Source: Mucidula mucida
Lineage: Eukaryota; Basidiomycota; Agaricomycetes; Agaricales; Physalacriaceae
DNA length: 64,000 bases
Direction: 5' to 3'
Assembly (NCBI GenBank): GCA_015501055.1
Contig: JADNYV010000034.1
Coordinates: 124,001-188,000 of the forward strand
Below are positions 4,760 through 62,828 of this stretch, in pieces; positions within the stretch are counted from its first letter, which is position 1; each line of letters begins with the position of its first letter. The notes below the pieces were generated by a model. It was not told the origin of the DNA, searched no databases, and saw nothing but the letters and a program-made list of their open reading frames with translations. Position numbers and translations under genes: made by a program.

Positions 4760-5340
4760 TTACTTCGCCGCAGCTGCCTTTGCCTTGGCTTCGGCGGCTT
4801 GGAAATCTGTAAGGGCTTTGCTGTCCATGAATTCCGTATAGGTCGAGATCTTCGGTAACTCTCCCTCAACCTTCGAGGGCACAAAGTCGAGGACAATCAG
4901 ATACTCGTTCTTCAGGACGCTTCCCAACTTGGAGACCGCCTCGCCTTGAAGCTGAAAGTGGCCGTTACGGTCATCAAAGCATCTAGATTTGAGTTCCACT
5001 CACATGCGAAATGACAGTACTACTGTTAGGTTCGGTAACTGTCAAAACTTTGAACTATCATCAGAATCAGATGGGCTCTATTCATTCTTTGAAATAGAAA
5101 TTTACGCACTACGAAGCTGTTGATCGTCGGCAAGAAGACGTCTTTGAGGTACGGTACCGCTTGAGCTTTGCTCAAGGGCGGGATGTGCAGAGACGTCGGG
5201 AACATGGACCACATGAACTTCTCGTCATCCATAGTCGCTGTAATGGCATCCACGTCCAACGCGTTCCAGCTATTGACATACTGGGCAAACGATCGATGGG
5301 CAGGGCTGGCATTGGGAGGGACAACATAATTCGAAGCCAT
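4760..5340 (-). CDS. NTF2/SnoaL-like small protein, paralog A
   Basis: Three exons. Exon 1 is MASNYVVPPNASPAHRSFAQ to LPTINSFV, exon 2 is FKVLTVTEPNSSTVISH, and exon 3 runs from LQGEAVSKLGSVLKNEY to an Ala/Lys-rich end (EAKAKAAAAK). About 155 residues, no signal peptide. The opening segment, in which a short helix precedes WNALDVDAITATMDDEKFMW, and the following beta-rich part fit the NTF2-like fold shared by SnoaL cyclases, ketosteroid isomerases and stress proteins. No catalytic dyad can be assigned, so the biochemical role is unknown. Two intact paralogs lie at 52411-53001 and 53448-54029; the 3' flank is most like that of the latter. Confidence 0.75.
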
Positions 5341-15756: not shown

Positions 15757-16029
15757 ATTTAGATATGAGATTGATAGTCTACGTGTTGTTGTAAGTTGCT
15801 GTGAGATTGAGGCCCTTGTTCTTGGGAATATCGATGTGCGTGAATATGGAGGCTGTAGAGGCAAACTTGGTAAAATACTTTCCAACTTAGAGAGGCGAAC
15901 ACGTCGGAAGGATCTAGTGGTAGTCGGGCCGGTGCCGGAACTCACAATGGACGGTCATCCCATAACGCGACGACCTATCGCAGGTATGTCAAAGACCTCA
16001 TCTGGCATAAGAATTTGAGATTATACAGA

Positions 16030-16797
16030 CTACCCACTCCATCCTTCGCTCGTGTTTAAGTACTTCAGCTGGTTCTCAGTAACGAAATCAAACACTGTCT
16101 CCCAGTCTCGACACACATGTACAATTCCTAGACCGTCTATGCTATGCTTGTTTATCATGGGATCCAACGTCGTGTCACTGGCGCAAAGGACTGTCTGCCT
16201 CATGAGATTTAAGCAGTGTCGCGTGTGATGACCTGCGTCGCCCTGGACGATGGCATCGCGAATTTTCTGCAAGCAGTGCATTTGGTGAAACATCGCTACT
16301 CCTAGACTGTATTTCAGTAATGCCCTCTTCTAGAACGCAGCGTTCCCATACCAAATTTTCTACCTAGAAACAAGGCAATCAGCACAACTGTTCGCTGGGT
16401 ACTGTTTCCTTTTACCATTTGGGCCCAATTTGACGAAGCCGTTGCTCGCTGGGAACATGTCGGTCGTTCGCCAGTCACCCCACGCGTAGAAGTCTGACAG
16501 TCCAAAGTGCTCGCTGTTCTCAACCTTCATGCCGACCGTTGGAAGATGTATAGGCAGTTCCTGCGGATAATCGTCCCCGATGTAACCTTCAAAGAAACTC
16601 GGTCAGCACATCCTTTCTTTCAATACCCAGTGTAGCGTACTGAAGTGACTGTCGTCTCCTTCCTTCATCTCGAGGACGCTTTCGCAGGTTTCTCGACGAT
16701 AGCGAAAAACATAGACAGCAGATAAGTTCAACGCGATGGATAAGAGAAGTCCGGTGTACGCCACCAGCAGGGCATTACGGGGCAGGAGTTGAACCAT
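16030..16797 (-). CDS. UstYa-like oxidase (DUF3328), RiPP/mycotoxin tailoring type
   Basis: Four exons reconstruct in phase; introns start GTACGC, GTAAAA and GTATGG. A short N-terminus precedes one membrane helix (NALLVAYTGLLLSIALNLSA), so it is a type II membrane protein. The lumenal part has GDDYPQELPIHLPTVGM and FYAWGDWRTTDMFP, then RKFGVAMFHQMHCL and HTRHCLNLMRQTVLC, which contain both HxxHC motifs that define UstYa-family proteins, and finally HVCRDWETVFDF. Family members catalyse oxidative cyclisation, hydroxylation or related steps on ribosomal peptides such as ustiloxin, and on cyclochlorotine. About 200 residues, normal for the family. It is divergent from the But2-C-like gene and about 2 kb from the repeat precursor. 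A start at 16899 is possible but gives an implausible N-terminus. Confidence 0.88.
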
Positions 16798-17113
16798 GTC
16801 TGATGCTTCTCCAAAGGCTCTTCTCCAAGTATAAAGGACCTCAGTTTGACAAATAAATGCGCCCAATACACAGCCACTATCAGCAAATGTGAAACGCACT
16901 GGAGGAACGGGGATCCTCGGTCACATAGGTTCACAAATTTAGCTCCCATTTTCAGCCCCGCACAGCGCTCGTAGCAGCTCCGTATGGTTTGCCGCTTCGT
17001 CGAGCACTCTAGAGGTCCCCACTTCCTCCGTTATCAGGGATCCACATGATGCAACTATTCTTGCAACTACTCTGGCTTTGTATCTTCAATTTCTTCCTTC
17101 CCCACCCTACAGT
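16798..17113. promoter_or_regulatory. Divergent promoter region, UstYa-like / But2-C-like genes
   Basis: 316 bp separate the two start codons, so regulatory sites are probably shared. No binding site could be named. Confidence 0.45.
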
Positions 17114-18099
17114 ATGGCAGAGTACATGCGACTTCCGTCCTCGAGTACTGTCGACGACGATGACGAGTACAAAGAGACCTCTGTACCGCAGGTCTCTCGT
17201 GATCGCGGCGGATCTTGCTTCGATAGCCTTCTTCTTGCTAGTCTGATAGCCATGCTTGCTATCGTCGCCGCCGGAGCGTTCCATTTCAGCGTTTTTACTG
17301 CTCCGCCTGGACTTCAGCGCATGCCTAGTACGCGAGAGGTCGTTTCTGGTCTCGTTATCGGAGACTTGAATAAGAATCTCGATGCTGGTAGGGCGATCAT
17401 TCGACACAATTCAAAGAAGCTTCATCCGACCAGTAGGTTGTTCGTTCTGAGTACTTCACAGACTCTCATCATCTTCAGGCGGAAAAATGTGGTTCCCAGC
17501 TGCGATGATCCATGTGAATGCTGAAGAGCCCGATACCACGTACACTTCTGGATCTCATGTCATCCTCAGCCCATCGGTGAAGTTTTATGCGTCTTTTATA
17601 CAACCGACTTCTGAACGTTCATTATAGGACTCGATGATCTATCACTGGAGGTTCAATAGTAGCTGGCCCAAATGCTACATCTCGGGATGGGTTTCGCCGC
17701 TCGCGAAATTGATTGAAGGTGGCAAGTCTTATTCTGTAGAAGGCGACGTGACAGAGATTGAGGTCTGGAACGTGGATTATCCCTCGGACTCAAGCCTTGC
17801 GTCGTTGAGCTGGAACACGCGTCCTATGCGTCAGTCTTTGCTTGGGACCGTGAATTTCACGGATTACGACGTCCAACGCCAGCTGTTCCACAGTGACGGA
17901 AAAGAGCTCAAGAGTCCGACCCCTCTATTCGACTGCATCGACCGCCGCACCATCACGTTGGAGATTGCCTGCAAGGCCTGCCGTCTCGAGTTTGATCAGG
18001 TGTTCTCAGATCCTGCGTTGGGTACGTGTTTGCTTTCTGTAACCTTCGCGGGGATTGATTGTGCCATCCACAGGATTTGAACTCATTGAGTTGGCGTGA
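17114..18099 (+). CDS. Membrane-anchored But2 C-terminal-domain-like protein
   Basis: Starts MAEYMRLPSSSTVDDDDEYKE, a short acidic cytosolic part. One membrane helix follows (LLLASLIAMLAIVAAGAFHFSV), then a beta-rich extracytoplasmic domain with SSWPKCYISGWVSPLAKLI, EIEVWNVDYPSDSSLASLSW, LFDCIDRRTITLEIACKAC and the ending PALGFELIELA. This is the layout of the large Agaricomycete family related to the C-terminal domain of But2 (ubiquitin-like-binding protein). Function in basidiomycetes is unknown. Four exons; the last splice (GGGTACGT...CACAG) gives a clean stop. It sits between the UstYa-like gene and the peptide precursor, which makes it a candidate cluster member, but the family is widespread, so this may be chance. 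Confidence 0.7.
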
Positions 18100-18800
18100 T
18101 TGAAGTATTTCTGTACAGACCTCAATATATACACCTTCAGCTGTATCATGTGTGTAACCTCGGCGCGAACAAACACTGCCACGTACCTATATCTACACGC
18201 AACATAGAATCGTCCATTCAGCGTCGTTGAAGGACATCAACGGTGAGAGTGAGAGGGTATCCACAATTCGTCGCAGTAATGTTGAATGAAACAAGATGCT
18301 TTGCGACGACTCACGGCATGTGGGCTTATCTTCAACTTGAAGCGCCACAATTCAATCTCTGTCTGTCACTTCGCACTCACTGTTCTGGTTCCGTAGAAAT
18401 TCAACTGGTAAATTTAGTATCATACCGGTAATACAGAGTCCCTGTTATTGTACACCTGGCGAATGATCAGCGCTCAGGAATGAATTGCCCTTGCAACCAA
18501 GTGGATGTATATGCGGGTCACCAGATATGGTGGGTAGAAAATAGTGCCTTGCAAACAGACGTTGAATAACCCTACATCAAATGTAGAGTCAGCGTTGAGG
18601 GAGGCTGTGAGGAAGGTATTCTTACCTGCTGCAAGAATAGAACATGCCCGAGAAGTATGCAGCGCCCATGGGGGCTTCAGAGGACATGATGAGAATGCGC
18701 GACTGCGTTTCATGGCCTGATATATCTGCTCGTGCGATGTATAAGAGACGTCGTACTCATCCATCCTGAGCTTTAACAACTTGAAGTTGTAACAACAATC
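18100..18800. other. Intergenic upstream of the repeat-peptide precursor
   Basis: No supported exon. The last 65 bp hold a TATA-like site and a short palindrome (ACAACTT-G-AAGTTGT, 18776-18790) ending 10 nt before the precursor ATG, probably in its 5' leader. Confidence 0.5.
18740..18745 (+). promoter_or_regulatory. TATA-like element of the peptide precursor
   Basis: TATAAG, 56 nt before the ATG at 18801. Distance and sequence suit a core promoter of a small, strongly expressed gene. Confidence 0.5.
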
Positions 18801-19167
18801 ATGCGCTTCACCGCTGTTTTTGCCTCCTTGGTCCTCCTCGTTTCCGCCGTCGCCGCGTTTCGTAAGCTGTCTGTCCTACTGAAGTGGCATAAAGTGCTAA
18901 TGCCATTTAGCTGTGGATAAGCGCGAGGGACCCGAGGACTATGAAGAGCCATACTCGGACTTGACGAAGCGCGCGGGTCCTGAGAACTACGAAGAGCCCT
19001 ACTCTGACCTCACGAAGCGCGAGGGACCAGAGGATTATGAGGAACCCTACTCCGACTTGACCAAGCGCGCAGGTCCAGAGAACTACGAAGAGCCGTATTC
19101 TGACTTGACGAAGCGCGAGGGGCCCGAGAACTATGAGGAGCCATACTCTGACGTCGTCGGGAAGTGA
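18801..19167 (+). CDS. Secreted repeat-peptide precursor (Kex2-processed, dikaritin-like RiPP)
   Basis: Two exons with an intron at 18862-18910 (GTAAGC...TTTAG). Exon 1 encodes a signal peptide (MRFTAVFASLVLLVSAVAAF); the splice gives PVDKR, so the mature part begins right after a Lys-Arg. Five 16-residue units follow: EGPEDYEEPYSDLTKR, AGPENYEEPYSDLTKR, both again, then EGPENYEEPYSDVVGK and stop. Lys-Arg is the Kex2 protease site, so the Golgi should release five peptides of 14-16 residues. There is no Cys and no CaaX box. Signal peptide plus near-identical KR-separated repeats with paired Tyr residues is the layout of dikaritin precursors (UstA, PhomA type), and a UstYa-like gene lies 2 kb away. 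Alternatives are a pheromone-like signal or a surface repellent peptide. Confidence 0.88.
18925..19164 (+). repeat. Five tandem 48-bp coding repeats of the precursor
   Basis: Units start at 18925, 18973, 19021, 19069 and 19117. Units 1 and 3 are the EGPED type and units 2 and 4 the AGPEN type, which suggests duplication of a 96-bp dimer. Units differ mainly at third codon positions (for example CCC/CCT/CCA and TCG/TCT/TCC) while YEEPYSD stays fixed, a sign of selection on the peptide. Confidence 0.92.
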
Positions 19168-19788: not shown

Positions 19789-22376
19789 ATGCCCCTCAGA
19801 TACACCCTCCTGCCAATCCTTCTTGGGTTTCTACTCGTGTCTGCCCAACTAGTAAGCAGTTTCGCAGCTACTCTGGCTGCTGAGATGACTTGACTCAGGT
19901 ACCAAATCCTACAGGCCCCATAGAATGGACTGTGTGCGACGAGCGGCCCAACGATCCTCACTTCTCTTGCGCGTTCTACGACGTCCCACTTGATTGGACA
20001 GATCCCTCAGACGACCGGAAAGCAACGATATTCCTAGCTAAATATTCTCCCCTAAGTTCGAAAACCTTAGGTACTGTGTTCTACAACCCCGGTGGCCCGT
20101 AAGCACTTTGGTTTGAGCGCGCCGACATCAAAGCTAATTCAACGTGATTGTAGAGGTATCAGCGGGGCAACGTACATTTTGCAAGGCACGGGCGAACGTC
20201 TGAGCAACCGCACCGGCGGGCAATATGACATCGTTGGTTGAGATCCTCGCGGTGTCGGCAAAACAATGTATGTCCTACAAGTTTATATATCCTTTATACA
20301 TCGCCTCATTAAAACATCTAGCCCAGGGAACATAGTCTGCTTTCCAAACTATGCCAATGAAACAGCATATTGGGAGGGGACCATCGTAAACGGTTACGAA
20401 ATTCGTGGCAACTTTACCTACCAGGCTGACGTTGATTTTGCGTATGCGCAGATTGATGTCATGGAAGACAGGTTCGCGTCGTTGCAGAAGCAATGTAAGA
20501 CTATGGAAGGCGGAGCACAGTACATGGAGTATATTGGTACAACAGCGACCGTTCGGGATCTGGTCGGTAGCCTGCCAATTCAACAGCGTCCTCGGTTGAT
20601 ATCGTCTCCTATAGGTCGCTTTAGCTGACAGTATAGATGGTGTGGGCACATCCATCAATTATATCGGTGTTAGTTAGTGAGTCGTTTTCTTGCATTGATT
20701 ACAGACGCGCACTAATGGACGGTTATAGCGGGACCGTCAGTAAGTGGGCCCCCTTCGCGTATGGCGCGTCGTTTTGATCACTGTCTAGTTGGGAGCTACC
20801 TGGTTAATATGTTTCCGGACGTAAGTATATCTGCGCTGACTACCTTCTCGTTCTGAATTTACGTGCCAGTAGCGAGTTGGGAAGATTGTCATCGACGGAG
20901 TGGTTAACCCGGACTACTATGCTCGGAAGCGCGCTGACTTGGTAAGTCGTTGACTGAGTTACGATTGTTATCTTGTCACTCAACAGCATTAGTCGTGGCG
21001 CCGACATGTTGAATCAGCAGATGAAGCCTTTCAGGGTTGGCACACATCGGCCATGTACGCAAGACAAACGTTCATTTGATTCATATAGGTTTTGCTCAAG
21101 GCTGTAAACTCGCCGGACCTTACGGATGCATCTTAGCAAATTCTCCAGTGACAAACGGGCTTGACATTATCGCTTGGACTCATGACCTTGACGTTGTAGG
21201 TCTCCTCTCATTCATAATTCATCCGATTCAAGGTTTACTCGTCAGCGCGCCTATGACAGTTACACTCGAGGTATTGGCGAGGGCTCCTTCATACTGCGTG
21301 CACAACTGTTCAATGACCTCTACTCCCCCGCGAAGTGGTCCGACCTATCGAAGATGCTATACAACTACGATTTGGAGGTGAGAGGACTTACACGTTCTAA
21401 CGTGAAGCGAACAGAACGGGATGCACTGTTTCCGCGAGAGACCGGCGGTAGTCCACCCTCAGAGTCATTATCCCTGGAAGCCATCACATGTGGCGATTCC
21501 GTTGATCGAGGCGACACAACATCTCGGATGGTTTTGGATGAACTCGAAGCCACGGCGCGGGAGGTTTCTGGGCTGTGTGTGTTCCCGCTGCCCGTGGTAC
21601 GCGTTCGCTAATAAGCATTTACAGTTGGAGCCCGCTTTTTGCAATATCATATATGTCATATGTGGCCCGTGCGGGCAAAGGAGCGGTTCCAAGGACCGTT
21701 CAACCAAAAGCTTGCGAATCCTATATTGGTCATTGGAAACACAGCTGATGTAGGTTCTGACGATGGCCGTAAGAGGTTGACGATGACGTTTGTATATAGC
21801 CTATAACACCGTTTATTGATGCGCAATTGACTGCAGAAGAGCTGGGAGACTCGGCGATCTTGATCAAGCAGAACGGGTTTGGGGTGCGTCGTCCAAGCAG
21901 CGCTGCATCGACGTACTCACGCTGTTCGTCAATAACACAGCTCTGGCGTTCAGCAATCAGCCTGTACTCATGAAATCATCCGCAACTTCTTTGTGTACGG
22001 AACGGTCAGTTGTTCCTATCTGTGGTCAATATACTTGCATTGATGTCCACAGCATCCTACCGGTGAGGATACCATCTGCGAAGTCCAAGACATGCAAGTA
22101 TTCTCTACCAAAAATATATCGACTAGCGATATCGCTGCTCACCTGGCCACAACGAATGGGGTCGCGGCCTCGTACGAGAATACAAACACGAAAACGGCAT
22201 ATGTGATTGCTATTATTGTGTTGGGTGCGCTCGTCCTGCTGTTGGCAACAGCTTTGGTTGTTCTGTCGATGCGATCACGAAGGCGGTATAGGGTGGTAGG
22301 GAAGGCATATCCGGTGTCCTTCCATGCTGCTCTGGAAGGTTCCTCGCTTTCTGGTGAGAAGGAGGATAAGGAGTGA
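19789..22376 (+). CDS. TAP-like alpha/beta hydrolase (S33 peptidase family), membrane-anchored, with an in-frame TGA
   Basis: Signal peptide (MPLRYTLLPILLGFLLVSAQ), then WTVCDERPNDPHFSCAFYDVPLDW, the oxyanion region FYNPGGPGISG, and YDIVG-DPRGVGKT. The nucleophile elbow is GVSYGT (GxSxG), followed by IDGVVNPDYY, LANPILVIGNTAD and PITPFIDAQL, as in tripeptidyl-aminopeptidase-like enzymes. A C-terminal membrane helix (VIAIIVLGALVLLLATALVV) has a basic cytosolic tail. It is a secretory-pathway exo- or aminopeptidase by family. Codon 20239-20241 is TGA where the family has an aromatic residue before DPRG, so this copy looks truncated unless the base is an error. Placed directly after the KR-repeat precursor on the same strand, it is a candidate trimming peptidase. 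Confidence 0.78.
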
Positions 22377-43359: not shown

Positions 43360-46300
43360 TCAGAGCTCGTCATCAGTGATTTCCTCACCTCTCTTCTTAC
43401 GTGCCATCCGCTCCTTCTTGAGCTTCCGTGCCTCTGCTGCTGTGATCTTCTTCTGCTTCTTGTTCTCGATCTTGTTACCCATAGCATCGTACTGATCTTC
43501 CTCGTCGCCGTCCTTCTTGTCAATGCGGGGACCGGCGCCCTGGCCTTCGACCCAGTTGTGGCCAGAAGCCTCAAGACGACCATCGCGCATTGCCCACACT
43601 TCCTTGCACAGTGACTCAGAAAAGTCCCGGTTGTGGGTGATGACAAGCACACCACCCTCGAAGACCTTGAGAGCTTCAATGAGTGCGGCGAGTGATTCAC
43701 GATCGAGGTAGTCTGAAAGCGAATGTCAGTAATGAGAAAACGAGCACGATCCCTGAATGAACTCACTAGTCGGCTCATCCAAGCACATAACGTGGGGTCG
43801 ACGCCATGTTGCAGCACCGAGAACAATCTTGACCTTCTGTCCTCCAGAGAGACCCCTCATAGTGTTGTGGGAAACGAACTCAGGCTCGAGACCAAAGTCA
43901 GCGAAGTGCTTCTCAATCTCCCGACGAACGAGAGGACGGAGAAGACCAAGGCGCTGAGCCTCTCTTGTGTCAACCTCGAGCACTTTCTAGAAACACAAGC
44001 AAATGTCAGCGAAAAACACGCGAGCTTGACAGAAAGGCTCACCTTTTCGAATCCACGCTTGATCAGGTCATCTCGTGGCAGCCAGACGTTCTCTGACGAA
44101 CTGAGACCCTTGAACGACACCTCGTACTCGTACGACTGCTTCAGCTTCTTCCTTGCGACAATCTCGTCGATCAACCGCTTCTGGCCCTCGATGACGACGA
44201 CACCTCCATCCTTCATCTTCTGCATCTCCTCCTCAGAGATCTGGCGATTGGCCTTGGTCATCTCCTCCAAGTCCTCACCGGTCTGGTAACGCCATAGCAT
44301 GTACTCAAGAGGCGTCTTGTCCAGGTGGTTATCGATATGGTGGAAAGCATGTTGGGCGACGTAGCCAATGACCAAGTTGGGGTGCTTCCAGATTTCACCA
44401 CCCTTGTTCGGCTCCATGTCGCCGATGAGGAGCTTGACGAGGGTAGATTTACCGGAACCGTTGGGGCCGAGGACGGCGACACGCGAAGAGAGGGATACCT
44501 GTAGAGTGATGTCGAAGAGTTGCTGTACGGGCTGTGTTGGGTACTGGAATCCAACTTTGCGCCTGAAAACAATATTAGAAAGTGAACTTGACAAGCAGAT
44601 ATTACCTACATCTTCAAGAGAGATTTCTCCTTGGTCTTGACACCCTCGAGCAGAGGTGGGTCAGGGAGCTTGAACCTGTAGTCCTCAGCAGCCTCGAGAG
44701 TATAGTATGACTTGGCCTCTGGAACCTGGGCAACGAACTTCTCGAGGTTACCGCGATATCTGCGGAGCTTGAAGCGGTTCAAGTGGAGAACGTCGGTGAT
44801 GGTGTTGTTGAGGAAACTGGAGTCGTGAGACACGATGACTGCAGATACGTGAATTAAGTGACGAATTAACGAAGGTAAACTTACTCGAAGTGCAAGTCTT
44901 GAGATTGGTGAGGTAGCCCTCCAACCAGGCAACGTTGACGACGTCCAAATGGTTAGTGGGCTCATCGAGGAGCAGGATGTCAGCCCTGAAAAGCATCGCA
45001 CGAGCGAGGGCGAGTTTCATCTTCCAACCACCGGACAGACTGCCGATAGCCTGCTGCTGGCGCTCATCGTTGAACCCGACGGAGGCGAGAGTCTCGATGA
45101 CCTCGGTCTCAGTGGCGAGGATACGCTTGTCAGTCAATATGAACGAGAGGACAGAGGTATCTTCTTCGCTGCCATCAATGTCGTGCTCGACATAGAAGGT
45201 GCGGACGTCGTCGGGTGAGGGGAAACCTTCGACTTGGCTGCAGAACGTAAATCAGTAAGCGATTTGTCACAGATGACACGACGACGAACCCGTTGGTGAT
45301 AGCGCGCATGAGAGTGGACTTGCCGGTACCGTTCTTACCGCAGAGACCGTAGCGGTGACCACGCTTGAGGCGGAGAGTAGCCGTGTTGAGGAGAATCTTC
45401 GCACCATAGGCCAAAGAGAACTGGCAGTTGCAAAGATCCTCACCCTCCTCCTCATCCTCGAGAGCCTCGCCTTCGTCGACGTCCTCGGTGGCCGAGCGGA
45501 CGACCCACTCACGAGAGACAGAGATGGGGTCGGGAGTCGAGGCTGCGAAAGCAAGATAAGGAGCCAAAGAGTCCCACTCGGGAACATCAAAGTTCTTGGC
45601 GTTGACGAGGTTAGCAGCAAGGGAGGAAGCGTAGATGGCGGCAACGTGTGCGACGTGAGTCTCGCTGCCGAGCTTCTTGTAGACGGCAGTCAAAGAGTGT
45701 CCGAGCGAGCCGGTGTCAGCAACCTTCAAGGGAGGAAGGTCCGAACCATCGCCTTCGGGAACCTCTCCGACTTGACGAAGAGTAGCAATAGCCTTGCCAA
45801 CAACACCACGGGCCTCAGGGTCACCGATAGAGCCTTCCACCTTGATCAGACCTGGAAGGAGTTTGGGGAGGAAAGGTCGGACGGTGACGGGAGAGTCCAC
45901 GAGCTTGGCCATATTGTCGACGATGCTGTAAACGCAAGTTAGAGAAGGGTAAAGACAGACAAATTGGAACTTACACAGCGACTTTACGCTTGGTGGAAGT
46001 CAACTTCTCGCTGAGACCACGCGAGAGAAGGGGGACCATTAGAGAAAGCGTAGGAGAGTCTACTTCGGAAACGAATGTGGTGGCCGAGAGGAGCATGATG
46101 GTATTAGGCACCTCTTCGACAGGATTAATAAGAGCCTTGATGAGAGCGGGAATAAAGCGTTCAATATCCTTGTTGGAAACCAGAGCAGTAGCCTTTGTAA
46201 GCGAATCACGAGCAGCCTTCTTCACGTCGGCCTTGGTGTCCCAGATGACCTCGGAGAGTACGGGGATAATCTCGGGCATGAGCTTCGCCATCTGAACAGG

Positions 46301-46843
46301 CGCGCTCTTGACCAGCTGGTTGAGGATCACGAGGGAACCGGTCTTGATCTGCCATTTGCCGGCAGTTTTGAGTTCGTGAAGAAGGGCGGGAAGAATGAGG
46401 GCGGTAGCCCAGGGGTTCATAGCTGCAACAAACTCCCTGACGGCCTCGACGGCTGCTGTCCGGACAGCAGGCATCTTGTCGGCGAATGCTTCGAGAAGGG
46501 CGGCGTAGATTCCAGACTCGGCGAATATTGGCTCGAGGGCCTTGACTGCGCCAGACTTGGCGAGCGAGGCGATGGCATCGGCGGCGCCCTCTCGTGCAGC
46601 AGGTGACTTTTTGTCGGCGAGAGACTTGACGACAGCTGGCGCGAAACCAGCTACGGTGAGAGCGTGTGGGCCCTCTTTTTGAGCAACAGCAGCGAGGGTG
46701 CTGGCTGCTGACTCGCGTGAAGACTTGTCGGCAACAAAGAGTGCTGCGATATCGACCTGGCTGTCGGACGGGTGCATGGCAGCCTTGAGATCGGCAGGGG
46801 AGGGAATTGCAGAGGGTGAAGAGGTTGCTGTAGCAGCGGGCAT
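43360..46843 (-). CDS. TEF3: Translation elongation factor 3 (eEF3), ABC-F-type ATPase
   Basis: Complete copy. Start [24 protein letters not shown] repeats follow (for example [21 protein letters not shown]), then a four-helix bundle. ABC1 has Walker [10 protein letters not shown] (near residue 485), signature LSGGWKMKL and Walker [16 protein letters not shown]2 has Walker [10 protein letters not shown], a chromodomain-like insertion ([29 protein letters not shown]), signature [10 protein letters not shown] and Walker [16 protein letters not shown]. The tail is Lys-rich ([25 protein letters not shown]). Fungal eEF3 uses ATP to release E-site tRNA during elongation and is essential in yeast. 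About seven exons. Divergent from the V-ATPase gene. A truncated near-identical copy lies at 58998-61363. Confidence 0.96.
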
Positions 46844-48307
46844 GTCTATAATCTGCACATCGATTTTTAGCGATTTTCCTGCGATTTCACATCGAAACAC
46901 TTGCGCACCTTGGATGGAGGAATGATGGAAGAAAAATGGAGGGTGATGTGCAACAAAGGCTGGTAAGAAACAAGGCACGCTCTATATCTAAGGATGGCAA
47001 ATCTGCCTGCTCGTCTTTCAGTACAGCAAAATCAAAGGGACGGCCAGCGATACTCACCTCTACGGAGGATACGGAGGGAAGAGAGAGAGGTGGAGACGGC
47101 GTCAGCTGGACTGCCAGTTTTGTATGAGAAAATTGTGGCAATTCAAACTCCGCTTTTGGATGGTTCCCATTCAATCGCGGACCTCGCATCTGATCTTTCT
47201 TGTGACTCTCCCCCGGCCATTTGTGGGGTAACAGTTCCGTTCACATACCCCGAGTCTCATTGAGCTTCTGTGGCACCTTAACCGACTCGAAACCCTCTTC
47301 TCAACTGCTCTATTTTTCACTTTCCTGGTTGTCCAAGGCCTAGATGGTCCAAATTGTCCGACTCGACTCTTGGTCATCTGTTCATATTCTAGACAGGAGG
47401 GACGCTAGCCGCCCTCTGGGCACCGCCGCGTGTCTTGCTGTGATATCATGACCTGCTCCGAATACTGCCTTGATACGACTCCGTCACGGTCCAGACGGAA
47501 CTCTTTTATATTCCTCTGCTTCCATAACGGCTGTTCTTCGAGCCCGAACATGCGCTTCTTCACCGGACTATCCTTAGCGATGTCCACGGCATCGTGTTCA
47601 CCTTGTTTTCTGTTATGTTCATCTGCTATGTTCTCGGCCGGCCAGCTGACTCTCGCCACATTTCCAAGTCGTGTTGCACAGCAACGCGTTGTTCTTTACG
47701 TCCTCTGTAGACTCCGGGCTGTATTTCACTCAATCTGAGCCAGAACCACTGCCGCAAATCACGATTGTTGGCGCACGCTGAAACTACATCGCATCATGTT
47801 CATCATCACGTACTGCTATTCAGTTGCCATTCAGTTCATTTTGGCTGCTTCACAACAGTGATCTGGTGGCGATGAACGAACGCGTCTCCTCGCCTCCCGC
47901 TTCACATCTAATAAAGCTAGGCTATGTCATGTTATTTCAGATTGTGGATGAAGAGTCGTTTGTGAATAGACCAAGGTACAGTTCATTCTTCACTGTAGAG
48001 TTGAATCTCCTTTTCCGCGAATTCCATTTTTGTAACTTGATTTTCAACGTGCATGGTGTGTGCAGTACGTGCGTCCTTTATAATCAGATGAAGGCGAGGT
48101 CAATCGGATTTTATTGTATTTGAGATTCGATGATCTGATAGTGATTAATATTTCTTGCCAAAGTCGTGTCTTGACTCTATGTGAACTTGCGCTTTGGTGA
48201 AGGCAGTGTTTGCGCTTGCTTGGCAACGTCAAGGCGTGCCCATCGTTGCCGACGACGAGCTCTCCTTTCTTTCTGACCAACTCGCATAATTCTATCGCCG
48301 TCCAGCA
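46844..48307. promoter_or_regulatory. Divergent promoter region, eEF3 / V-ATPase subunit a
   Basis: 1.46 kb between two housekeeping start codons. It must hold both promoters and 5' leaders, and may hold leader introns or a small gene (see 47405-47659). The sequence is duplicated unchanged between the second copies. Confidence 0.5.
47405..47659 (-). CDS. Possible small ORF between eEF3 and V-ATPase genes
   Basis: An 84-codon frame starting MARVSWPAENIADEHNRKQGE and ending DTRRCPEGG has a hydrophilic, balanced composition that looks more protein-like than its plus-strand shadow. No family recognised and no splice support. It recurs identically in the second copy (61925-62179). It could be an exon of a small gene or chance. 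Confidence 0.25.
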   Translation of the reverse strand: MARVSWPAENIADEHNRKQGEHDAVDIAKDSPVKKRMFGLEEQPLWKQRNIKEFRLDRDGVVSRQYSEQVMISQQDTRRCPEGG

Positions 48308-51300
48308 ATGGCAGACGACTATCCCAGTCTGCTCCGTATGTTTTCCTTTGGCAGTGGTCAGCTCGTTATTGACGACGTGGATAGGTTCGGAGCAGATGAG
48401 CTTGGTGCAGCTATTTGTGCCCACCGAAGTCGCTCATGACACCGTCGCCGAGCTTGGCGAACTCGGGAACATGCAATTCAAAGACGTGAGTATCTTCACA
48501 GCCGTTGGTAAAAATCAGCTTAACAAAGCTGCAAGTTGAATCCCAACGTCAATCCTTTCCAACGTTCATTTGTCGGCGAGATTCGGCGCATCGACGAAAT
48601 GGCGCGTCGAGTAAGGTTCTTTTCTGCTCAGCTGGCTGCGGAAAAAGACGTTGTGCCCATTCGTCCCCTCTACGACTCGGCCCCGTTGATTACTGTCGGT
48701 CCCCGAGCTGCCCAGACGATTGATGAGCTTGACGTTACCCTCGCCGAGCATGAGTCCAGGCTGGTGAAGATGAATGAGAGTTACCAGACTCTCAGTACCA
48801 GGACCAGAGAACTGGTTGAGGCCAAGCATGTGCTGAGGGAAACTGCAGTTTTCTTCGATAGGGTTAGTCTGCTCTTCTGCTTCTCAAATGCTTGTTGACG
48901 TTCCACAGGCTCAAGGACAACAGACTGACATACGCACCTCTTTTGATGAGAGTTCTGCGCCTCTCCTCCAACACGACGACCGAGAAAGCCAGTTCTCGGC
49001 TGGCGCAAACGTTCAGTTTGATTTAGAGTGGGTGTGCTATGCCTCTTGTTAGATTCTCTCTCAGCCATTATAGATTCGTCACCGGAACTTTGGACCGCGC
49101 GCGTATCCCTACATTTGAACGCGTTCTCTGGCGTGTTCTTCGTGGTAATCTCTACATGAATCACACGGATATCGTCGAACCATTTGTGGATCCTGCAACC
49201 GGCGCAGAGACTCGCAAGAATGTCTTCATTATCTTCGCCCACGGTGATGCTTTACTTGCCAAGATTCGCAAGGTCGCAGAATCTATGGGCGCCACTCTTT
49301 ACCCTATCGACGCTAATGCGGACAAACGTGCCGAGGCCCTTCGCGAAGTCTCCATCCGTCTCGAAGATATTGAGACGGTGCTGTATAACACAGGCTCCAA
49401 CCGCCGCTCCGAGATAGTCAGGATCGGGGAAAGCTTGCGCAGCTGGCAGGACGTAGTAAAGAAGGAGAAGCTGATTTACGAAACTCTAAACCTCTTCAAC
49501 TACGATGTCCGGAGGAAGACTCTCATTGCCGAAGGATGGGTACCCACTCGCGACATTACGACGATTCAGGTTGCCCTGCGCAGTGCTACCGAGGAATCTG
49601 GCACTTCGGTTCCACCCATCTTGCATGAGCTCAGGACAAGCAAGACCCCGCCAACATACCACCGTACTAACAAGTTTACCGAGGGTTTCCAAACGATCAT
49701 GGACAGCTACGGTATTGCTGCCTACCAAGAAGTTAATCCTGGTCTCTTTGCGGTCGTCACGTTCCCATTCCTGTTCGCCATCATGTTTGGTGATATTGGA
49801 CACGGATTCATTATTCTTTTCGCTGCCCTCTACATGATTCTTGCCGAGCGCAAACTTGCCAAACAAGACTTGGGCGAGATTTTTGGTCAATTTTTCTTGT
49901 CAGTTTTCCTTCTAGTGCCAACGCAAATGCATGCTGACATTTTGAACAGCGGTCGTTATATCATTCTTCTTATGGGCGCATTCTCTATTTATACGGGGCT
50001 GATGTATAACGATATCTTCTCCAAGTCTCTCCACCTGTGGCACTCTGCATGGGACTTCCCAGACGCTGACGGTGCTGGTAAGGTCGTTGGGACGATTGGT
50101 TCCCATAGATATCCCTTTGGTCTCGACCCAGGTTGGCACGGCGCGGACAACAACCTGGTGTTCGTCAACTCGTACAAGATGAAGATGTCTATTGTATTGG
50201 GTGTTATTCACGTAAGTCCGTGGACCCATTCACTGAAAATTCTCTGACGGTTGATATGATCTAGATGACGTTCGCCCTATGCTTGCAAGTCCCGAATCAT
50301 ATCAAGTTCAAACGCCCCGTCGACATCTACGCCAACTTCATCCCCCAGATCATCTTCTTGATGTCCATCTTCGGCTACCTTGTCATATGTATCCTCTACA
50401 AGTGGTCAGTTGATTGGAGTCAGACCAGCGTCAAACCACCTTCATTGTTGGTCATGTTGATTTCGATGTTCTTGTCGCCGGGTACTGTCGAGGAACCACT
50501 GTATCGTGGTCAGGGACCCATTCAAGTTGTTCTGTTGTTGCTGGCGGCCGTCTGTGTTCCGTGGTTGCTCATAACGAAGCCGTACATTCAATACAAAGAG
50601 ATGAAGAAGATTCACGACCAAGGCTATGTCGGTCTCAATCATGAAGCGCCTGCTCGTGACAGTTCGGACGAAGCGCTTGAAGGAGAGGAAGAGGGTAATG
50701 GACGTGCGATCGCTGAAGCTGCCGACGAGGAACATGTAAGTCACTTCCATACCATGCTGCGGATGTGAAACTGATAGTGCGGGCGCCCAGGAGGAACATG
50801 ATTTTGGCGAGGTTGTGATTCATCAGATCATCCACACTATTGAGTTTTGCTTGGGATGTATCTCGCATACAGCGTCATACCTGCGTCTGTGGGCGCTGTC
50901 GCTTGCCCATGCCCAGCTTAGTGAGGTGCTGTGGTCTATGATACACACGCCTGTTCCCAACTCTATCCGCGTGGCGGGCAAAGACGACGTGATTCCGACT
51001 AGCAAGCCGTTCACGGACAAACATGGCTTTGTCCGTGATTCCATCAGGTAAGACATTGCTGTTTCTTGTTCGACTCCCAGAAGCACCTGACGATTGATTG
51101 CAGTATCAAGAAAGGCGACACTATCATCATTCCGATATTTATTATGAACACCGATCCTGCGATATGGGGCGAGGACGCTGCAGAGTTCAAGTACGAGCCT
51201 TGTCTTTCTGGCATCATCGAGGTTGAAACTGACGGTGCTCTCATGGCAGACCAGAACGATGGGAGAAGGCTCCGGAGGCGGTATCCGCCGTTCCCGGTGT

Positions 51301-52410: not shown

Positions 52411-53001
52411 TCAGTATGCCACAGCGCCTGCTTTTGCCCTGGCCTCGGCTTCGGCAGCGTGGAAGTCTGTAACGGCTTTGCTGTCCATGAATTCCGTGTA
52501 GGTCGAGATCTTTGGTAACTCTCCCTCGACCTTCGAGGGCACAAAGTTGAGGACAATCAGATACTCGTTCTTCAGGACATTCCCCAACTTGGAGACCGCC
52601 TCGCCTTGAAGCTGAAAGCAGCTGTTATGGTCATCAAAACATCTAAGTTTGAGTTCCACTCACATGCGAAATGAGAGTGCTGCTGTTAGGTTCGGTAACT
52701 GTCAGAACTGTGAACTGTCATCAGAGTCAGATGCGCTCTTTTCGTTTCATTGAAATACAGATTTACGCACTACGAAGCTGTTCATCACCGGAACGAAGGC
52801 CTCTTTGATGTATGGTACCGCCTGAGCTTTGCTCAAGGGCGGGATGTGCAGAGACGTAGGGAACATGGACCACATGAACTTCTCGTCATCCATAGTCGTT
52901 GTGATGGCATCCACGTCCAACGCGTTCAAACCATTAACATACTTGGCGAACGTTCGATGGGCAGGGCTGGCATTGGGAGGGACAACGTAGTTCGAAGACA
53001 T
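52411..53001 (-). CDS. NTF2/SnoaL-like small protein, paralog C
   Basis: Same three-exon plan as the gene at 4760-5340. It starts MSSNYVVPPNASPAHRTFAKYV and has NALDVDAITTTMDDEKFMWSMFP, FVPSKVEGELPKISTYTEFM, and the ending EARAKAGAVAY. Differences from paralog A are mostly conservative, so the protein is probably still made. Function unknown. Next to paralog D on the same strand. Confidence 0.75.
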
Positions 53002-53447
53002 CGAGTTGCAGCTGATGATATGCGGACCAGAGACGAAGTGAGGTTGGGGTGTTGAGTATTGAGCAAGTTCAGAAGCTTGCAGCTTTTATCGAGAGTGAGC
53101 CGAGTCGACTTTTGAGCTGAGGTGGCAGAGCGGCGTGTAGTTGTCGGTTAAATCGACAGTTAGAGTAAAGATAAGGCCGTCATGAGAGTATGTTTGTGGT
53201 GCTCAGGACTCCCGCCAGCATCATGTCGCTGATGCCGAACGAATCCCTTTTTTCCGGCCGAGTATGTTGCTCATCTTCGATGTTCACTCCCTCTGCCTTC
53301 GAAGATTATATTGGTACAGAAGGTGCAAAGTTTTCCCAAACTGTCTATGTTCACGCGATCTTCTAACCGGCACCTACAACAAGAAGTTTCAGCACAAGAA
53401 TACCGACCATGTACAACAACGGTTACCTTTTCGATTGACTACTAACA

Positions 53448-54029
53448 TTACTTCGCCGCCGCTGCCCTTGCCTTGGCTTCGGCGGCCAGGAACTCTGTAA
53501 GGGCTTTGCTGTCCGTGAACTCCCAGTAAGTCGAGATCTTTGGTAACTCTCCCTCAACCTTCGAGGGCACAAAGTTAAGGACAATCAGATACTCGTTCTT
53601 CAGGACATTCCCCCGCTTGGAGACCCCCTCGCTTTGCACCTGAAACAGCCGTTATGGTCATCAGAGCATCTAGATTTGAATTTTGCACTCACATGCGAAA
53701 TGACAGTGCTACTGTTAGGTTCGGTGAATGTCAAAACTCTGAACTATCATCAGAATCAGATCGGCTGTATTCTTTCCTTGATATTAAGATCTACGCACTG
53801 CGAAGCTGTCGAGAGTTGCCAAGATGTGGTCTTTGAGGTATGCTACCGCTTGAGCTTTGCTCAAGGGCGGGATCTTCATAGACGTTGGGAGTATCGACCA
53901 CATGAACTTTTCGTCGTCCATAGTCGCTGTAATGGCATCCAAATCCAAAGCGTTCCAGCTATTGACAAACTCGGCAAAGGAGCGATGGGCAGGGCTGGCA
54001 TTGGGGGGGACAACATAATTCGAAGCCAT
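53448..54029 (-). CDS. NTF2/SnoaL-like small protein, paralog D
   Basis: Starts MASNYVVPPNASPAHRSFAEFV. Exon 1 continues NALDLDAITATMDDEKFMWSIL, exon 2 is FRVLTFTEPNSSTVISH, and exon 3 runs VQSEGVSKRGNVLKNEYLIV to EAKARAAAAK. It is more diverged than A and C in the middle (LKDHILATLDSFA). The 3' flank, with CCGGCACCTACAACAAG and CACAAGAATACCGACCATG, matches that of paralog A. Confidence 0.75.
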
Positions 54030-59006: not shown

Positions 59007-61363
59007 CTGTAAACAATCCTGTAGAGTGATGTTGAAGAGTTGCTGTACGGGCTGTGTTGGGTACTGGAATCCAACTTTGCGCCTGAAAACAATATTAGAA
59101 AGTGAACTTGACAAGCAGATATTACCTACATCTTCAAGAGAGATTTCTCCTTGGTCTTGACACCCTCGAGCAGAGGTGGGTCAGGGAGCTTGAACCTGTA
59201 GTCCTCAGCAGCCTCGAGAGTATAGTATGACTTGGCCTCTGGAACCTGGGCAACGAACTTCTCGAGGTTACCGCGATATCTGCGGAGCTTGAAGCGGTTC
59301 AAGTGGAGAACGTCGGTGATGGTGTTGTTGAGGAAACTGGAGTCGTGAGACACGATGACTGCAGATACGTGAATTAAGTGACGAATTAACGAAGGTAAAC
59401 TTACTCGAAGTGCAAGTCTTGAGATTGGTGAGGTAGCCCTCCAACCAGGCAACGTTGACGACGTCCAAATGGTTAGTGGGCTCATCGAGGAGCAGGATGT
59501 CAGCCCTGAAAAGCATCGCACGAGCGAGGGCGAGTTTCATCTTCCAACCACCGGACAGACTGCCGATAGCCTGCTGCTGGCGCTCATCGTTGAACCCGAC
59601 GGAGGCGAGAGTCTCGATGACCTCGGTCTCAGTGGCGAGGATACGCTTGTCAGTCAATATGAACGAGAGGACAGAGGTATCTTCTTCGCTGCCATCAATG
59701 TCGTGCTCGACATAGAAGGTGCGGACGTCGTCGGGTGAGGGGAAACCTTCGACTTGGCTGCAGAACGTAAATCAGTAAGCGATTTGTCACAGATGACACG
59801 ACGACGAACCCGTTGGTGATAGCGCGCATGAGAGTGGACTTGCCGGTACCGTTCTTACCGCAGAGACCGTAGCGGTGACCACGCTTGAGGCGGAGAGTAG
59901 CCGTGTTGAGGAGAATCTTCGCACCATAGGCCAAAGAGAACTGGCAGTTGCAAAGATCCTCACCCTCCTCCTCATCCTCGAGAGCCTCGCCTTCGTCGAC
60001 GTCCTCGGTGGCCGAGCGGACGACCCACTCACGAGAGACAGAGATGGGGTCGGGAGTCGAGGCTGCGAAAGCAAGATAAGGAGCCAAAGAGTCCCACTCG
60101 GGAACATCAAAGTTCTTGGCGTTGACGAGGTTAGCAGCAAGGGAGGAAGCGTAGATGGCGGCAACGTGTGCGACGTGAGTCTCGCTGCCGAGCTTCTTGT
60201 AGACGGCAGTCAAAGAGTGTCCGAGCGAGCCGGTGTCAGCAACCTTCAAGGGAGGAAGGTCCGAACCATCGCCTTCGGGAACCTCTCCGACTTGACGAAG
60301 AGTAGCAATAGCCTTGCCAACAACACCACGGGCCTCAGGGTCACCGATAGAGCCTTCCACCTTGATCAGACCTGGAAGGAGTTTGGGGAGGAAAGGTCGG
60401 ACGGTGACGGGAGAGTCCACGAGCTTGGCCATATTGTCGACGATGCTGTAAACGCAAGTTAGAGAAGGGTAAAGACAGACAAATTGGAACTTACACAGCG
60501 ACTTTACGCTTGGTGGAAGTCAACTTCTCGCTGAGACCACGCGAGAGAAGGGGGACCATTAGAGAAAGCGTAGGAGAGTCTACTTCGGAAACGAATGTGG
60601 TGGCCGAGAGGAGCATGATGGTATTAGGCACCTCTTCGACAGGATTAATAAGAGCCTTGATGAGAGCGGGAATAAAGCGTTCAATATCCTTGTTGGAAAC
60701 CAGAGCAGTAGCCTTTGTAAGCGAATCACGAGCAGCCTTCTTCACGTCGGCCTTGGTGTCCCAGATGACCTCGGAGAGTACGGGGATAATCTCGGGCATG
60801 AGCTTCGCCATCTGAACAGGCGCGCTCTTGACCAGCTGGTTGAGGATCACGAGGGAACCGGTCTTGATCTGCCATTTGCCGGCAGTTTTGAGTTCGTGAA
60901 GAAGGGCGGGAAGAATGAGGGCGGTAGCCCAGGGGTTCATAGCTGCAACAAACTCCCTGACGGCCTCGACGGCTGCTGTCCGGACAGCAGGCATCTTGTC
61001 GGCGAATGCTTCGAGAAGGGCGGCGTAGATTCCAGACTCGGCGAATATTGGCTCGAGGGCCTTGACTGCGCCAGACTTGGCGAGCGAGGCGATGGCATCG
61101 GCGGCGCCCTCTCGTGCAGCAGGTGACTTTTTGTCGGCGAGAGACTTGACGACAGCTGGCGCGAAACCAGCTACGGTGAGAGCGTGTGGGCCCTCTTTTT
61201 GAGCAACAGCAGCGAGGGTGCTGGCTGCTGACTCGCGTGAAGACTTGTCGGCAACAAAGAGTGCTGCGATATCGACCTGGCTGTCGGACGGGTGCATGGC
61301 AGCCTTGAGATCGGCAGGGGAGGGAATTGCAGAGGGTGAAGAGGTTGCTGTAGCAGCGGGCAT
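58998..61363 (-). pseudogene. TEF3: eEF3, second copy, truncated at the start of ABC2
   Basis: Identical to the complete gene from the start codon through HEAT repeats and ABC1 to [16 protein letters not shown]. One change (Asp to Asn) gives FNITLQ. After ITLQ the sequence leaves eEF3, reads DCLQAE and stops. All of ABC2 and the basic tail are lost, so it is unlikely to support translation. The joint is with RPS14. Confidence 0.92.
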
Positions 61364-62828
61364 GTCTATAATCTGCACATCGATTTTTAGCGATTTTCCT
61401 GCGATTTCACATCGAAACACTTGCGCACCTTGGATGGAGGAATGATGGAAGAAAAATGGAGGGTGATGTGCAACAAAGGCTGGTAAGAAACAAGGCACGC
61501 TCTATATCTAAGGATGGCAAATCTGCCTGCTCGTCTTTCAGTACAGCAAAATCAAAGGGACGGCCAGCGATACTCACCTCTACGGAGGATACGGAGGGAA
61601 GAGAGAGAGGTGGAGACGGCGTCAGCTGGACTGCCAGTTTTGTATGAGAAAATTGTGGCAATTCAAACTCCGCTTTTGGATGGTTCCCATTCAATCGCGG
61701 ACCTCGCATCTGATCTTTCTTGTGACTCTCCCCCGGCCATTTGTGGGGTAACAGTTCCGTTCACATACCCCGAGTCTCATTGAGCTTCTGTGGCACCTTA
61801 ACCGACTCGAAACCCTCTTCTCAACTGCTCTATTTTTCACTTTCCTGGTTGTCCAAGGCCTAGATGGTCCAAATTGTCCGACTCGACTCTTGGTCATCTG
61901 TTCATATTCTAGACAGGAGGGACGCTAGCCGCCCTCTGGGCACCGCCGCGTGTCTTGCTGTGATATCATGACCTGCTCCGAATACTGCCTTGATACGACT
62001 CCGTCACGGTCCAGACGGAACTCTTTTATATTCCTCTGCTTCCATAACGGCTGTTCTTCGAGCCCGAACATGCGCTTCTTCACCGGACTATCCTTAGCGA
62101 TGTCCACGGCATCGTGTTCACCTTGTTTTCTGTTATGTTCATCTGCTATGTTCTCGGCCGGCCAGCTGACTCTCGCCACATTTCCAAGTCGTGTTGCACA
62201 GCAACGCGTTGTTCTTTACGTCCTCTGTAGACTCCGGGCTGTATTTCACTCAATCTGAGCCAGAACCACTGCCGCAAATCACGATTGTTGGCGCACGCTG
62301 AAACTACATCGCATCATGTTCATCATCACGTACTGCTATTCAGTTGCCATTCAGTTCATTTTGGCTGCTTCACAACAGTGATCTGGTGGCGATGAACGAA
62401 CGCGTCTCCTCGCCTCCCGCTTCACATCTAATAAAGCTAGGCTATGTCATGTTATTTCAGATTGTGGATGAAGAGTCGTTTGTGAATAGACCAAGGTACA
62501 GTTCATTCTTCACTGTAGAGTTGAATCTCCTTTTCCGCGAATTCCATTTTTGTAACTTGATTTTCAACGTGCATGGTGTGTGCAGTACGTGCGTCCTTTA
62601 TAATCAGATGAAGGCGAGGTCAATCGGATTTTATTGTATTTGAGATTCGATGATCTGATAGTGATTAATATTTCTTGCCAAAGTCGTGTCTTGACTCTAT
62701 GTGAACTTGCGCTTTGGTGAAGGCAGTGTTTTGCGCTTGCTTGGCAACGTCAAGGCGTGCCCATCGTTGCCGACGACGAGCTCTCCTTTCTTTCTGACCA
62801 ACTCGGATAATTCTATCGCCGTCCAGCA
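61364..62828. promoter_or_regulatory. Divergent promoter region, second copy
   Basis: Duplicate of 46844-48307 with one extra T and one C-to-G change. Confidence 0.5.

What the first reader, a model, noticed from the sequence alone, without database searches (positions are those of the whole stretch)
16030..19167. Candidate dikaritin-like RiPP locus in a basidiomycete
Seen: a secreted precursor with five KR-separated repeats, each with YEEPYSD, lies about 2 kb from a UstYa-like protein holding both HxxHC motifs. Known: in ustiloxin, phomopsin and asperipin pathways a Kex2-processed repeat precursor is cyclised by UstYa-family proteins at Tyr or other side chains. Inference: this locus makes a cyclic or cross-linked peptide from the repeat core. 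Characterised dikaritins are mainly ascomycete, so a basidiomycete case with this acidic core would be new.
Basis: partly seen in the sequence, partly recalled or inferred. Interest (0 to 1): 0.92.

Follow-up and report, generated by a model that had tools for sequence, protein, structure and literature searches.

The report
Mushroom cross-linked peptide (RiPP) locus
A mushroom genome carries a gene for a repeat protein with a secretion-signal-like start and five near-identical short peptides, about 2 kb from a gene for a UstYa-type enzyme; the peptides are likely cut apart and predicted to be chemically cross-linked by that enzyme, and the same peptide core recurs in other mushroom-forming fungi, which would make it a conserved mushroom counterpart of the ascomycete dikaritins.

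Summary
Window 18801-19167 (+) encodes a 105-aa precursor: signal-like start, then five 16-residue units, all with YEEPYSD, four ending in KR. About 2 kb away, 16797-16030 (-) encodes a 203-aa UstYa protein (Pfam PF11807) with two HxxHC motifs, the dicopper site of this family. One gene of unknown function lies between. Both genes recur on the other haplotype.

New here: the core is a family. Four other precursors (two Mycena, one Stereum, one JGI contig) repeat GP-x-[NDS]-Y-E-x-x-Y-S, 16 units with the window's five; one 12-residue stretch is identical in Stereum (Russulales) and the window (Agaricales). Among the window's units synonymous sites are saturated (pS 0.85) while the core is held (pN 0.04). 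In Mycena alexandri precursor and UstYa are listed on contigs of one length, 193,758 bases, so very likely one contig. In Stereum the UstYa hits found lie on other contigs. No expression or mass data exist; cross-linking is inference.

Such pairs were already counted in Basidiomycota in 2020 (103 of 1680 precursors), so the kind is known; this core family appears new, and I found no characterised basidiomycete dikaritin in the papers searched.

The parts
18801..19167 (+). Precursor gene, two exons (18801-18861, 18911-19167), 105 aa, signal-like N-terminus then PVDKR and five repeat units
   Evidence: the genome search matched it only here and on haplotype contig C230
18801..18861 (+). Exon 1: signal-peptide-like segment MRFTAVFASLVLLVSAVAAF
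   Evidence: read from the translation; no signal-peptide predictor was available
18925..18972 (+). Repeat unit 1 EGPEDYEEPYSDLT-KR
18973..19020 (+). Repeat unit 2 AGPENYEEPYSDLT-KR
19021..19068 (+). Repeat unit 3 EGPEDYEEPYSDLT-KR
19069..19116 (+). Repeat unit 4 AGPENYEEPYSDLT-KR
19117..19164 (+). Repeat unit 5 EGPENYEEPYSDVVGK, then stop
16030..16797 (-). UstYa-family (PF11807, DUF3328) gene, four exons, 203 aa, N-terminal transmembrane-like helix
   Evidence: helix 9-43 in the model of the 95% identical ortholog P0004
16273..16287 (-). First HxxHC motif, HQMHC
   Evidence: sequence; its His and Cys columns are 90% or more conserved in the 45 aligned proteins
16213..16227 (-). Second HxxHC motif, HTRHC
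   Evidence: sequence; His columns 90% or more conserved, C143 invariant in the 45 aligned proteins
17114..18099 (+). Gene between the pair: predicted membrane protein of unknown function, very weak But2-like match (E 0.14, below the cut-off)
   Evidence: approximate hand-spliced model; the genome search returned only the two haplotype copies; membership in the pathway not shown
18740..18747 (+). TATAAGAG, a TATA-box-like sequence 54-61 bases before the precursor start codon
   Evidence: sequence; function not tested

Best explanation
The locus encodes a repeat precursor and a UstYa-family protein, and most likely makes a ribosomal peptide that is predicted to be cut out by kexin and then oxidatively cross-linked by the UstYa enzyme. 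Shown: the gene pair, the five units (four ending in KR), the double HxxHC motif, a kexin-type and a Ste13-type (DPPIV_N) gene in the same genome, recurrence of the core GP-x-[NDS]-Y-E-x-x-Y-S in four other precursors, and one and the same listed contig length for the two genes in Mycena alexandri. Inferred: the precursor enters the secretory pathway; kexin cuts after KR and a carboxypeptidase trims KR, giving 14-residue peptides [EA]GPE[DN]YEEPYSDLT; in relatives whose units begin with an extra X-P dipeptide, a Ste13-type peptidase removes it to give the same XGP start; the membrane-anchored UstYa, with two coppers at HxxHC(x)nHxxHC, uses dioxygen to join one conserved tyrosine of the Y-E-x-x-Y pair to the other or to a neighbouring side chain, with loss of 2 H per bond. 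Because the core is held nearly constant between two fungal orders, an endogenous signalling or developmental role seems more likely to me than a fast-changing toxin; that last step is the least supported.
For: Anatomy. UstYa family match. Two HxxHC motifs in 64 of 75 UstYa relatives (one in 4, none in 7); the six motif positions are 90% or more conserved in 45 aligned proteins (window plus 44 of the 75 hits). In the model of the 95% identical Hymenopellis ortholog (mean pLDDT 64.8, pTM 0.44; block means 56 to 86 over residues 111-160) the motifs start two adjacent helices, 116-133 and 138-152, like the helix pair described for CctR, whose HxxHC(x)nHxxHC is a binuclear copper site and whose His/Cys-to-Ala mutants were inactive (PMC12435403, passages). 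Invariant C153 and C177 are 24 apart, CctR's dimer cysteines C190 and C213 are 23 apart (likeness of spacing only; the sequences were not aligned). Precursor relatives with the core: P0001 (E 7.8e-6), P0002 (3.2e-4), P0003 (2.4e-3) and P0079 with the profile; 16 units match in 5 of 7 precursor candidates, window included. Codon test over the window's units: pS 0.851 (59.0/69.3), pN 0.041 (12.0/290.7), 10 pairs. Mycena alexandri precursor and UstYa both listed with a contig of 193,758 bases; a random gene would fall on it with odds of about 0.7% or less if the genome is 30 Mb or more (its true size not looked up). Kexin P-domain (PF01483): two matches, on two contigs; DPPIV_N (PF00930): one locus on each of two contigs. 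Precursor proteins of the two haplotypes identical.
Against: No expression, mass or mutant data. In Stereum hirsutum the precursor (contig 2,758,430) is not on the contig of either UstYa relative listed (1,736,555 and 1,715,195); a more distant UstYa could lie nearby, not testable here. For Mycena sp. CBHHK59/15 no UstYa was in the hit list. Among the named species of the UstYa list only Mycena alexandri and Stereum hirsutum also gave a precursor hit; small genes are often not annotated, but the absence is on record. No tyrosinase or transporter was seen among the neighbouring ORFs scanned. P0080, a degenerate relative, keeps PYS but lacks the first Tyr in its three core-like units. The protein model is of middling confidence and matched no solved structure.
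Confidence: 0.6

Rival explanations
1. The precursor gives linear peptides only, like other Agaricomycete Kex2-processed repeat proteins, and the nearby UstYa acts on some other substrate.
For: Unmodified or minimally processed linear peptides from such precursors were detected in Agaricomycetes (PMC9769878, passages); 1577 of 1680 Basidiomycota precursors (1680 minus 103) had no DUF3328 gene among the 15 nearest genes (PMC7329392); in Stereum the precursor is not on the contig of either UstYa hit.
Against: The pair lies 2 kb apart here on both haplotypes and shares a listed contig length in Mycena alexandri; my detector saw no repeat precursor in the stretches fetched around this genome's other UstYa hits, so adjacency is not the rule here; 16 of 19 core-like units keep two Tyr at the same spacing.
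Confidence: 0.25
2. UstYa modifies the core but does not close a ring: it hydroxylates or desaturates side chains.
For: Members of the family are implicated in hydroxylation, halogenation and desaturation as well as cyclisation (PMC12435403 and PMC10512285, passages).
Against: The conserved Y-E-x-x-Y pair is what a cross-link would need, and 65.6% of repeated sequences beside DUF3328 genes hold Tyr against 38.2% of the others (PMC7329392); neither point is decisive.
Confidence: 0.2
3. The acidic Tyr peptides act as structural or metal-binding surface peptides, or are Tyr-sulfated, comparable in use to the Rep1 repeat peptides of Ustilago.
For: The three core peptides computed carry a side-chain charge of -4 to -6; Rep1 is a repeat precursor whose peptides control hyphal wall properties (PMC6339444, passage).
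Against: Nothing found points to it; sulfation enzymes and assembly were not searched for.
Confidence: 0.07

Closest known systems
Dikaritins (ustiloxin B, phomopsin, asperipin-2a, victorin; epichloecyclins)
   Same: Multi-unit precursor with dibasic sites and signal-like start, UstYa/DUF3328 protein with two HxxHC motifs close by; as in asperipin-2a one UstYa gene was seen at the locus
   Different: Basidiomycete host; 14-residue acidic core with Y-E-x-x-Y instead of short YAIG, YVIPID or FYYTGY-type cores (those letters are recalled); no tyrosinase or transporter among the neighbouring ORFs scanned; chemistry unknown; core shared between fungal orders
Agaricomycete Kex2-processed repeat proteins (KEPs)
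   Same: Signal-like start, repeats, Kex2 sites; Ste13-type X-P dipeptides in the relatives
   Different: A UstYa gene lies close by; the AADW-ending and QYKAPSW peptides described in PMC9769878 (passages) have other cores
CctR, AprY and ApnU (copper-dependent DUF3328 enzymes)
   Same: N-terminal membrane helix, HxxHC(x)nHxxHC on a helix pair, a later Cys pair at like spacing (compared with CctR as described in PMC12435403)
   Different: Substrate and reaction of the window's enzyme unknown; sequences not aligned here; the AprY and ApnU papers were not held

Membership tests
Dikaritins | DUF3328/UstYa protein as class-defining enzyme (PMC12048977, passages) | tested here: met
   PF11807 50.6 bits, cut-off 25, E 3e-13; 75 relatives, 71 or more of them carrying the PF11807 label or a motif
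Dikaritins | Two HxxHC motifs in it | tested here: met
   HQMHC and HTRHC
Dikaritins | Secreted precursor with several core repeats separated by dibasic sites | tested here: met
   Five units; the secretion signal is read by eye, not by a predictor
Dikaritins | Core holds a residue that can be cross-linked, usually Tyr | tested here: met
   Two Tyr in each of five units; which residue reacts is unknown
Dikaritins | Tyrosinase, methyltransferase, peptidase or transporter in the cluster (not always present) | tested here: inconclusive
   Pfam scans of 20 selected ORFs or pieces between 9.4 and 31.7 kb: a P450 at 9.4-10.5 kb and an O-methyltransferase at 26.5-27.3 kb, separated from the pair by dynamin and OST48 genes; no tyrosinase or transporter among them
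Dikaritins | Product is a side-chain cross-linked peptide | not testable with these tools
   needs LC-MS/MS and NMR
Kex2-processed repeat proteins | Signal peptide, internal repeats, Kex2 sites between them (PMC6339444, passages) | tested here: met
   signal read by eye; kexin-type gene present in the genome
Conserved gene pair | Same two genes together in other species | tested here: inconclusive
   Shared contig length in Mycena alexandri; not in Stereum for the two UstYa hits listed; gene order not readable here

The most novel reading that the evidence does not exclude
This is the first recognised family of mushroom dikaritins: a UstYa dicopper enzyme ties the two tyrosines of a GPxxYExxYS peptide that has stayed nearly unchanged since Agaricales and Russulales split, serving as a conserved cyclic signal of mushroom-forming fungi instead of a toxin.
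Probability: 0.3. Interest if true: 0.8.

Novelty: new member of a known kind. Interest (0 to 1): 0.57.

Why it matters
A survey found Kex2-type precursors beside DUF3328 genes mainly in ascomycetes and left open whether Basidiomycota use a different cyclisation factor or hardly cyclise such peptides at all (PMC7329392). A compact locus with a conserved core, exact predicted masses and relatives in other mushroom-forming fungi makes that question directly testable. A core held nearly constant between orders is also unusual for a group known for toxins, so it could point to a biological role for cyclic peptides in mushroom growth or development.

Tried and rejected
Copies elsewhere in the genome: the precursor was matched only at C316 and the haplotype contig C230 (E up to 1). 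Repeat precursors beside the other UstYa loci: none detected in the stretches fetched around all 15 Pfam hits; the detector needs three similar units within one open frame and the flanks read run from about 0.9 kb (at a contig end) upward, so split, degenerate or more distant precursors could be missed. Against the window's UstYa, the other loci of this genome gave 28 to 39% identity, apart from one 19-residue piece at 63%; the C327 locus gave no match. So the window gene is not a recent paralog of those.

Neighbours as cluster members: the P450, dynamin, OST48 and O-methyltransferase genes were considered; dynamin and OST48 are housekeeping genes (general knowledge) and flank the pair, so I do not count the P450 or methyltransferase. 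The downstream frame from about 19790 to 22373, which I first took by eye for an S33-type peptidase, has an in-frame stop in both haplotypes near 20239, and the pieces scanned matched no Pfam family, so it is not used as evidence.

The plasmid search gave no match; the viral-contig scan had 4 pattern matches, none encoding a relative. No solved structure matches the UstYa profile (E up to 1), and Foldseek gave nothing at E 0.001 or better. Low divergence of the 16.0-19.2 kb block between haplotypes (0 to 8 differing columns per kb, against 87 per kb in the 3.3 kb upstream) also covers non-coding DNA, so I do not read it as selection.

The profile search scores its own seeds high by construction; only P0079, P0080 and P0081 are new there, and of these only P0079 carries the full core. 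P0081 resembles the annotated leader of the Stereum protein and has no core.

Six core strings were searched in paper texts, 0 papers; supplementary tables of Umemura 2020 could not be read, so the family may be listed there. PMC10206099 (outline seen) proved unrelated.

In checking this report against the calls I mended: the identity range of the other UstYa loci (28 to 39, not 36), the wording on which sites precede the X-P dipeptides, and a circular count of units (now 16 of 19).
Full report
What is there. The window is bases 124001-188000 of contig 316 of a 59.9-Mb genome. The closest UstYa relative is 95% identical, in Hymenopellis radicata (Agaricales, Physalacriaceae), so the organism is a close relative of that mushroom; I did not identify it further. 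The precursor gene runs 18801-19167 on the plus strand with one 49-base intron and encodes 105 residues: a signal-like hydrophobic start, PVDKR, then five 16-residue units. The UstYa gene runs 16797-16030 on the minus strand with three short introns and encodes 203 residues. The start codons are 2,004 bases apart and the genes point away from each other. Between them lies one predicted membrane protein gene (17114-18099, plus) with no paralog returned by the genome search and only a very weak But2-like match.

More than chance. One frame in the window passes a repeat-precursor detector and none in 100 dinucleotide-preserving shuffles. The five units differ heavily at synonymous sites (pS 0.851, 59.0 of 69.3) but hardly in protein (pN 0.041, 12.0 of 290.7; 12-residue core, 10 pairs). 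The units therefore look like old copies held by selection on the peptide, and not like a fresh tandem duplication. The second haplotype encodes the identical precursor protein (2 silent differences); the UstYa alleles differ by 3 residues and 1 silent site.

A family of cores. A search of 5.8 billion proteins found three relatives with the single sequence (E up to 0.01) and three more with a profile (E up to 10). In Mycena alexandri the units read AGPLNYEEPYSPDEM and like; in Mycena sp. CBHHK59/15 EGPENYEEPYSPDEV and like; in a protein from a 921-base JGI contig EGPEDYEEDYSPDEIV and IGPISYEEPYSPDEIV; in Stereum hirsutum TGPNNYEIGYSDYQGA twice and then EGPEDYEEPYSD. Sixteen units in five of the seven precursor candidates fit GP-x-[NDS]-Y-E-x-x-Y-S, the window's five included; P0080 (degenerate, three core-like units without the first Tyr) and P0081 (no core) do not. 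The stretch EGPEDYEEPYSD is letter-identical in the window and in Stereum, which belongs to a different order. In 8 of the 16 units an X-P dipeptide stands right before the XGP start, after KR, RR, a single Arg or the signal end; in the other 8 XGP follows KR directly, all five of the window among them (my count). Removal of X-P by a Ste13-type peptidase, reported for other Agaricomycete precursors (PMC9769878, passages), would give the same start everywhere. That convergence supports XGP as the true N-terminus; it is an inference.

Linkage elsewhere. The Mycena alexandri precursor P0001 and its UstYa P0011 (65% identical to the window's) are both listed with a contig of 193,758 bases, so very likely they share it; their distance cannot be read here. 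A random gene would fall on that contig with odds of about 0.7% or less for a genome of 30 Mb or more (genome size not looked up). Against this, the Stereum precursor is on a contig of a different length from both Stereum UstYa hits, and for the second Mycena no UstYa was in the list. In a tree of 34 UstYa proteins (window and 33 of the 75 hits) the window and Hymenopellis group with 14 Mycena proteins (93/91), within a wider set of 21 with Piloderma, Sparassis and two JGI proteins (91/99); 15 of 31 inner branches are open.

The enzyme. Two HxxHC motifs are present in 64 of the 75 relatives listed, one in 4 and none in 7. In the model of the Hymenopellis ortholog there is an N-terminal helix 9-43 and the motifs lie on two neighbouring helices (modest confidence overall). 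This is like the anatomy reported for CctR: membrane helix, lumenal domain, a helix pair carrying HxxHC(x)nHxxHC that binds two coppers, activity lost on His or Cys to Ala change, dioxygen needed (PMC12435403, passages). A 2025 paper summarises that DUF3328 enzymes use a dicopper site, for instance for the Tyr-O to Phe-C-beta ether of asperipin-2a (PMC12186524, passages). One DUF3328 protein is present in the asperipin-2a pathway (PMC7329392, section 7).

Mechanism. I commit to kexin cleavage, trimming, and oxidative cross-linking at the Y-E-x-x-Y pair by the UstYa enzyme. Gene pair, motifs, kexin-type and dipeptidase-type genes and core recurrence are shown; secretion, cleavage, trimming, copper loading and the cross-link are inferred. 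The kexin and dipeptidase matches are one locus on each of two contigs, which I take to be the two haplotypes.

Against known work. Umemura 2020 (passages, section 7, and part 1 of 2 of section 6 read) counted 1647 of 5372 Ascomycota and 103 of 1680 Basidiomycota repeat precursors with a DUF3328 gene among the nearest 15 genes, and wrote that the cyclisation factor might differ between the phyla or that cyclisation might hardly occur in Basidiomycota. Other papers list characterised dikaritins only from ascomycetes (PMC9233826, PMC10512285 and PMC12048977, passages). The O. raphanipes genome paper reports five fungal-RiPP-like regions and one more mixed with terpene, without describing them in the passages I saw (PMC9961838), so this locus may have been flagged by software in a relative. 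Pleurotus has 16 UstYa-like genes, six of them developmentally expressed (PMC8893723, passages), which fits a possible developmental role but concerns other genes. My ten paper searches cover only openly licensed papers.

Verdict. A real dikaritin-like locus, a new member of a known kind, with a conserved core that raises its interest. The cross-link is likely but unproven.

Noticed in passing
window about 44498-49500 and 59018-64000: A stretch with EF3-like and V-ATPase subunit ORFs appears repeated directly about 14,520 bases further on; the two 300-base pieces compared are 100% identical. An assembly duplication or a very recent segmental duplication.
   Followed up: partly
window about 19790-22373 (+): A frame that looks by eye like a secreted S33-type peptidase has an in-frame stop near 20239 in both haplotypes; the pieces scanned gave no Pfam match.
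   Followed up: partly
window 15757-19167 against contig C230: The UstYa to precursor block is nearly identical between haplotypes (0 to 18 differing columns per kb) while the stretch just upstream, with the dynamin gene, differs at 87 per kb; possible gene conversion or recent shared ancestry.
   Followed up: partly
G000 C1:20472-21703 and C103:12221-13452: Two UstYa hits in divergent orientation, less than 1 kb apart, on both of two similar contigs, with no repeat precursor detected in the stretches read.
   Followed up: partly
window 4775-5293 and 52435-53982: Dispersed 300-base direct repeats, 61 to 90% identical to their reference copies, about 47.7 kb apart, plus a 168-base pair at 53118 and 54136.
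   Followed up: no
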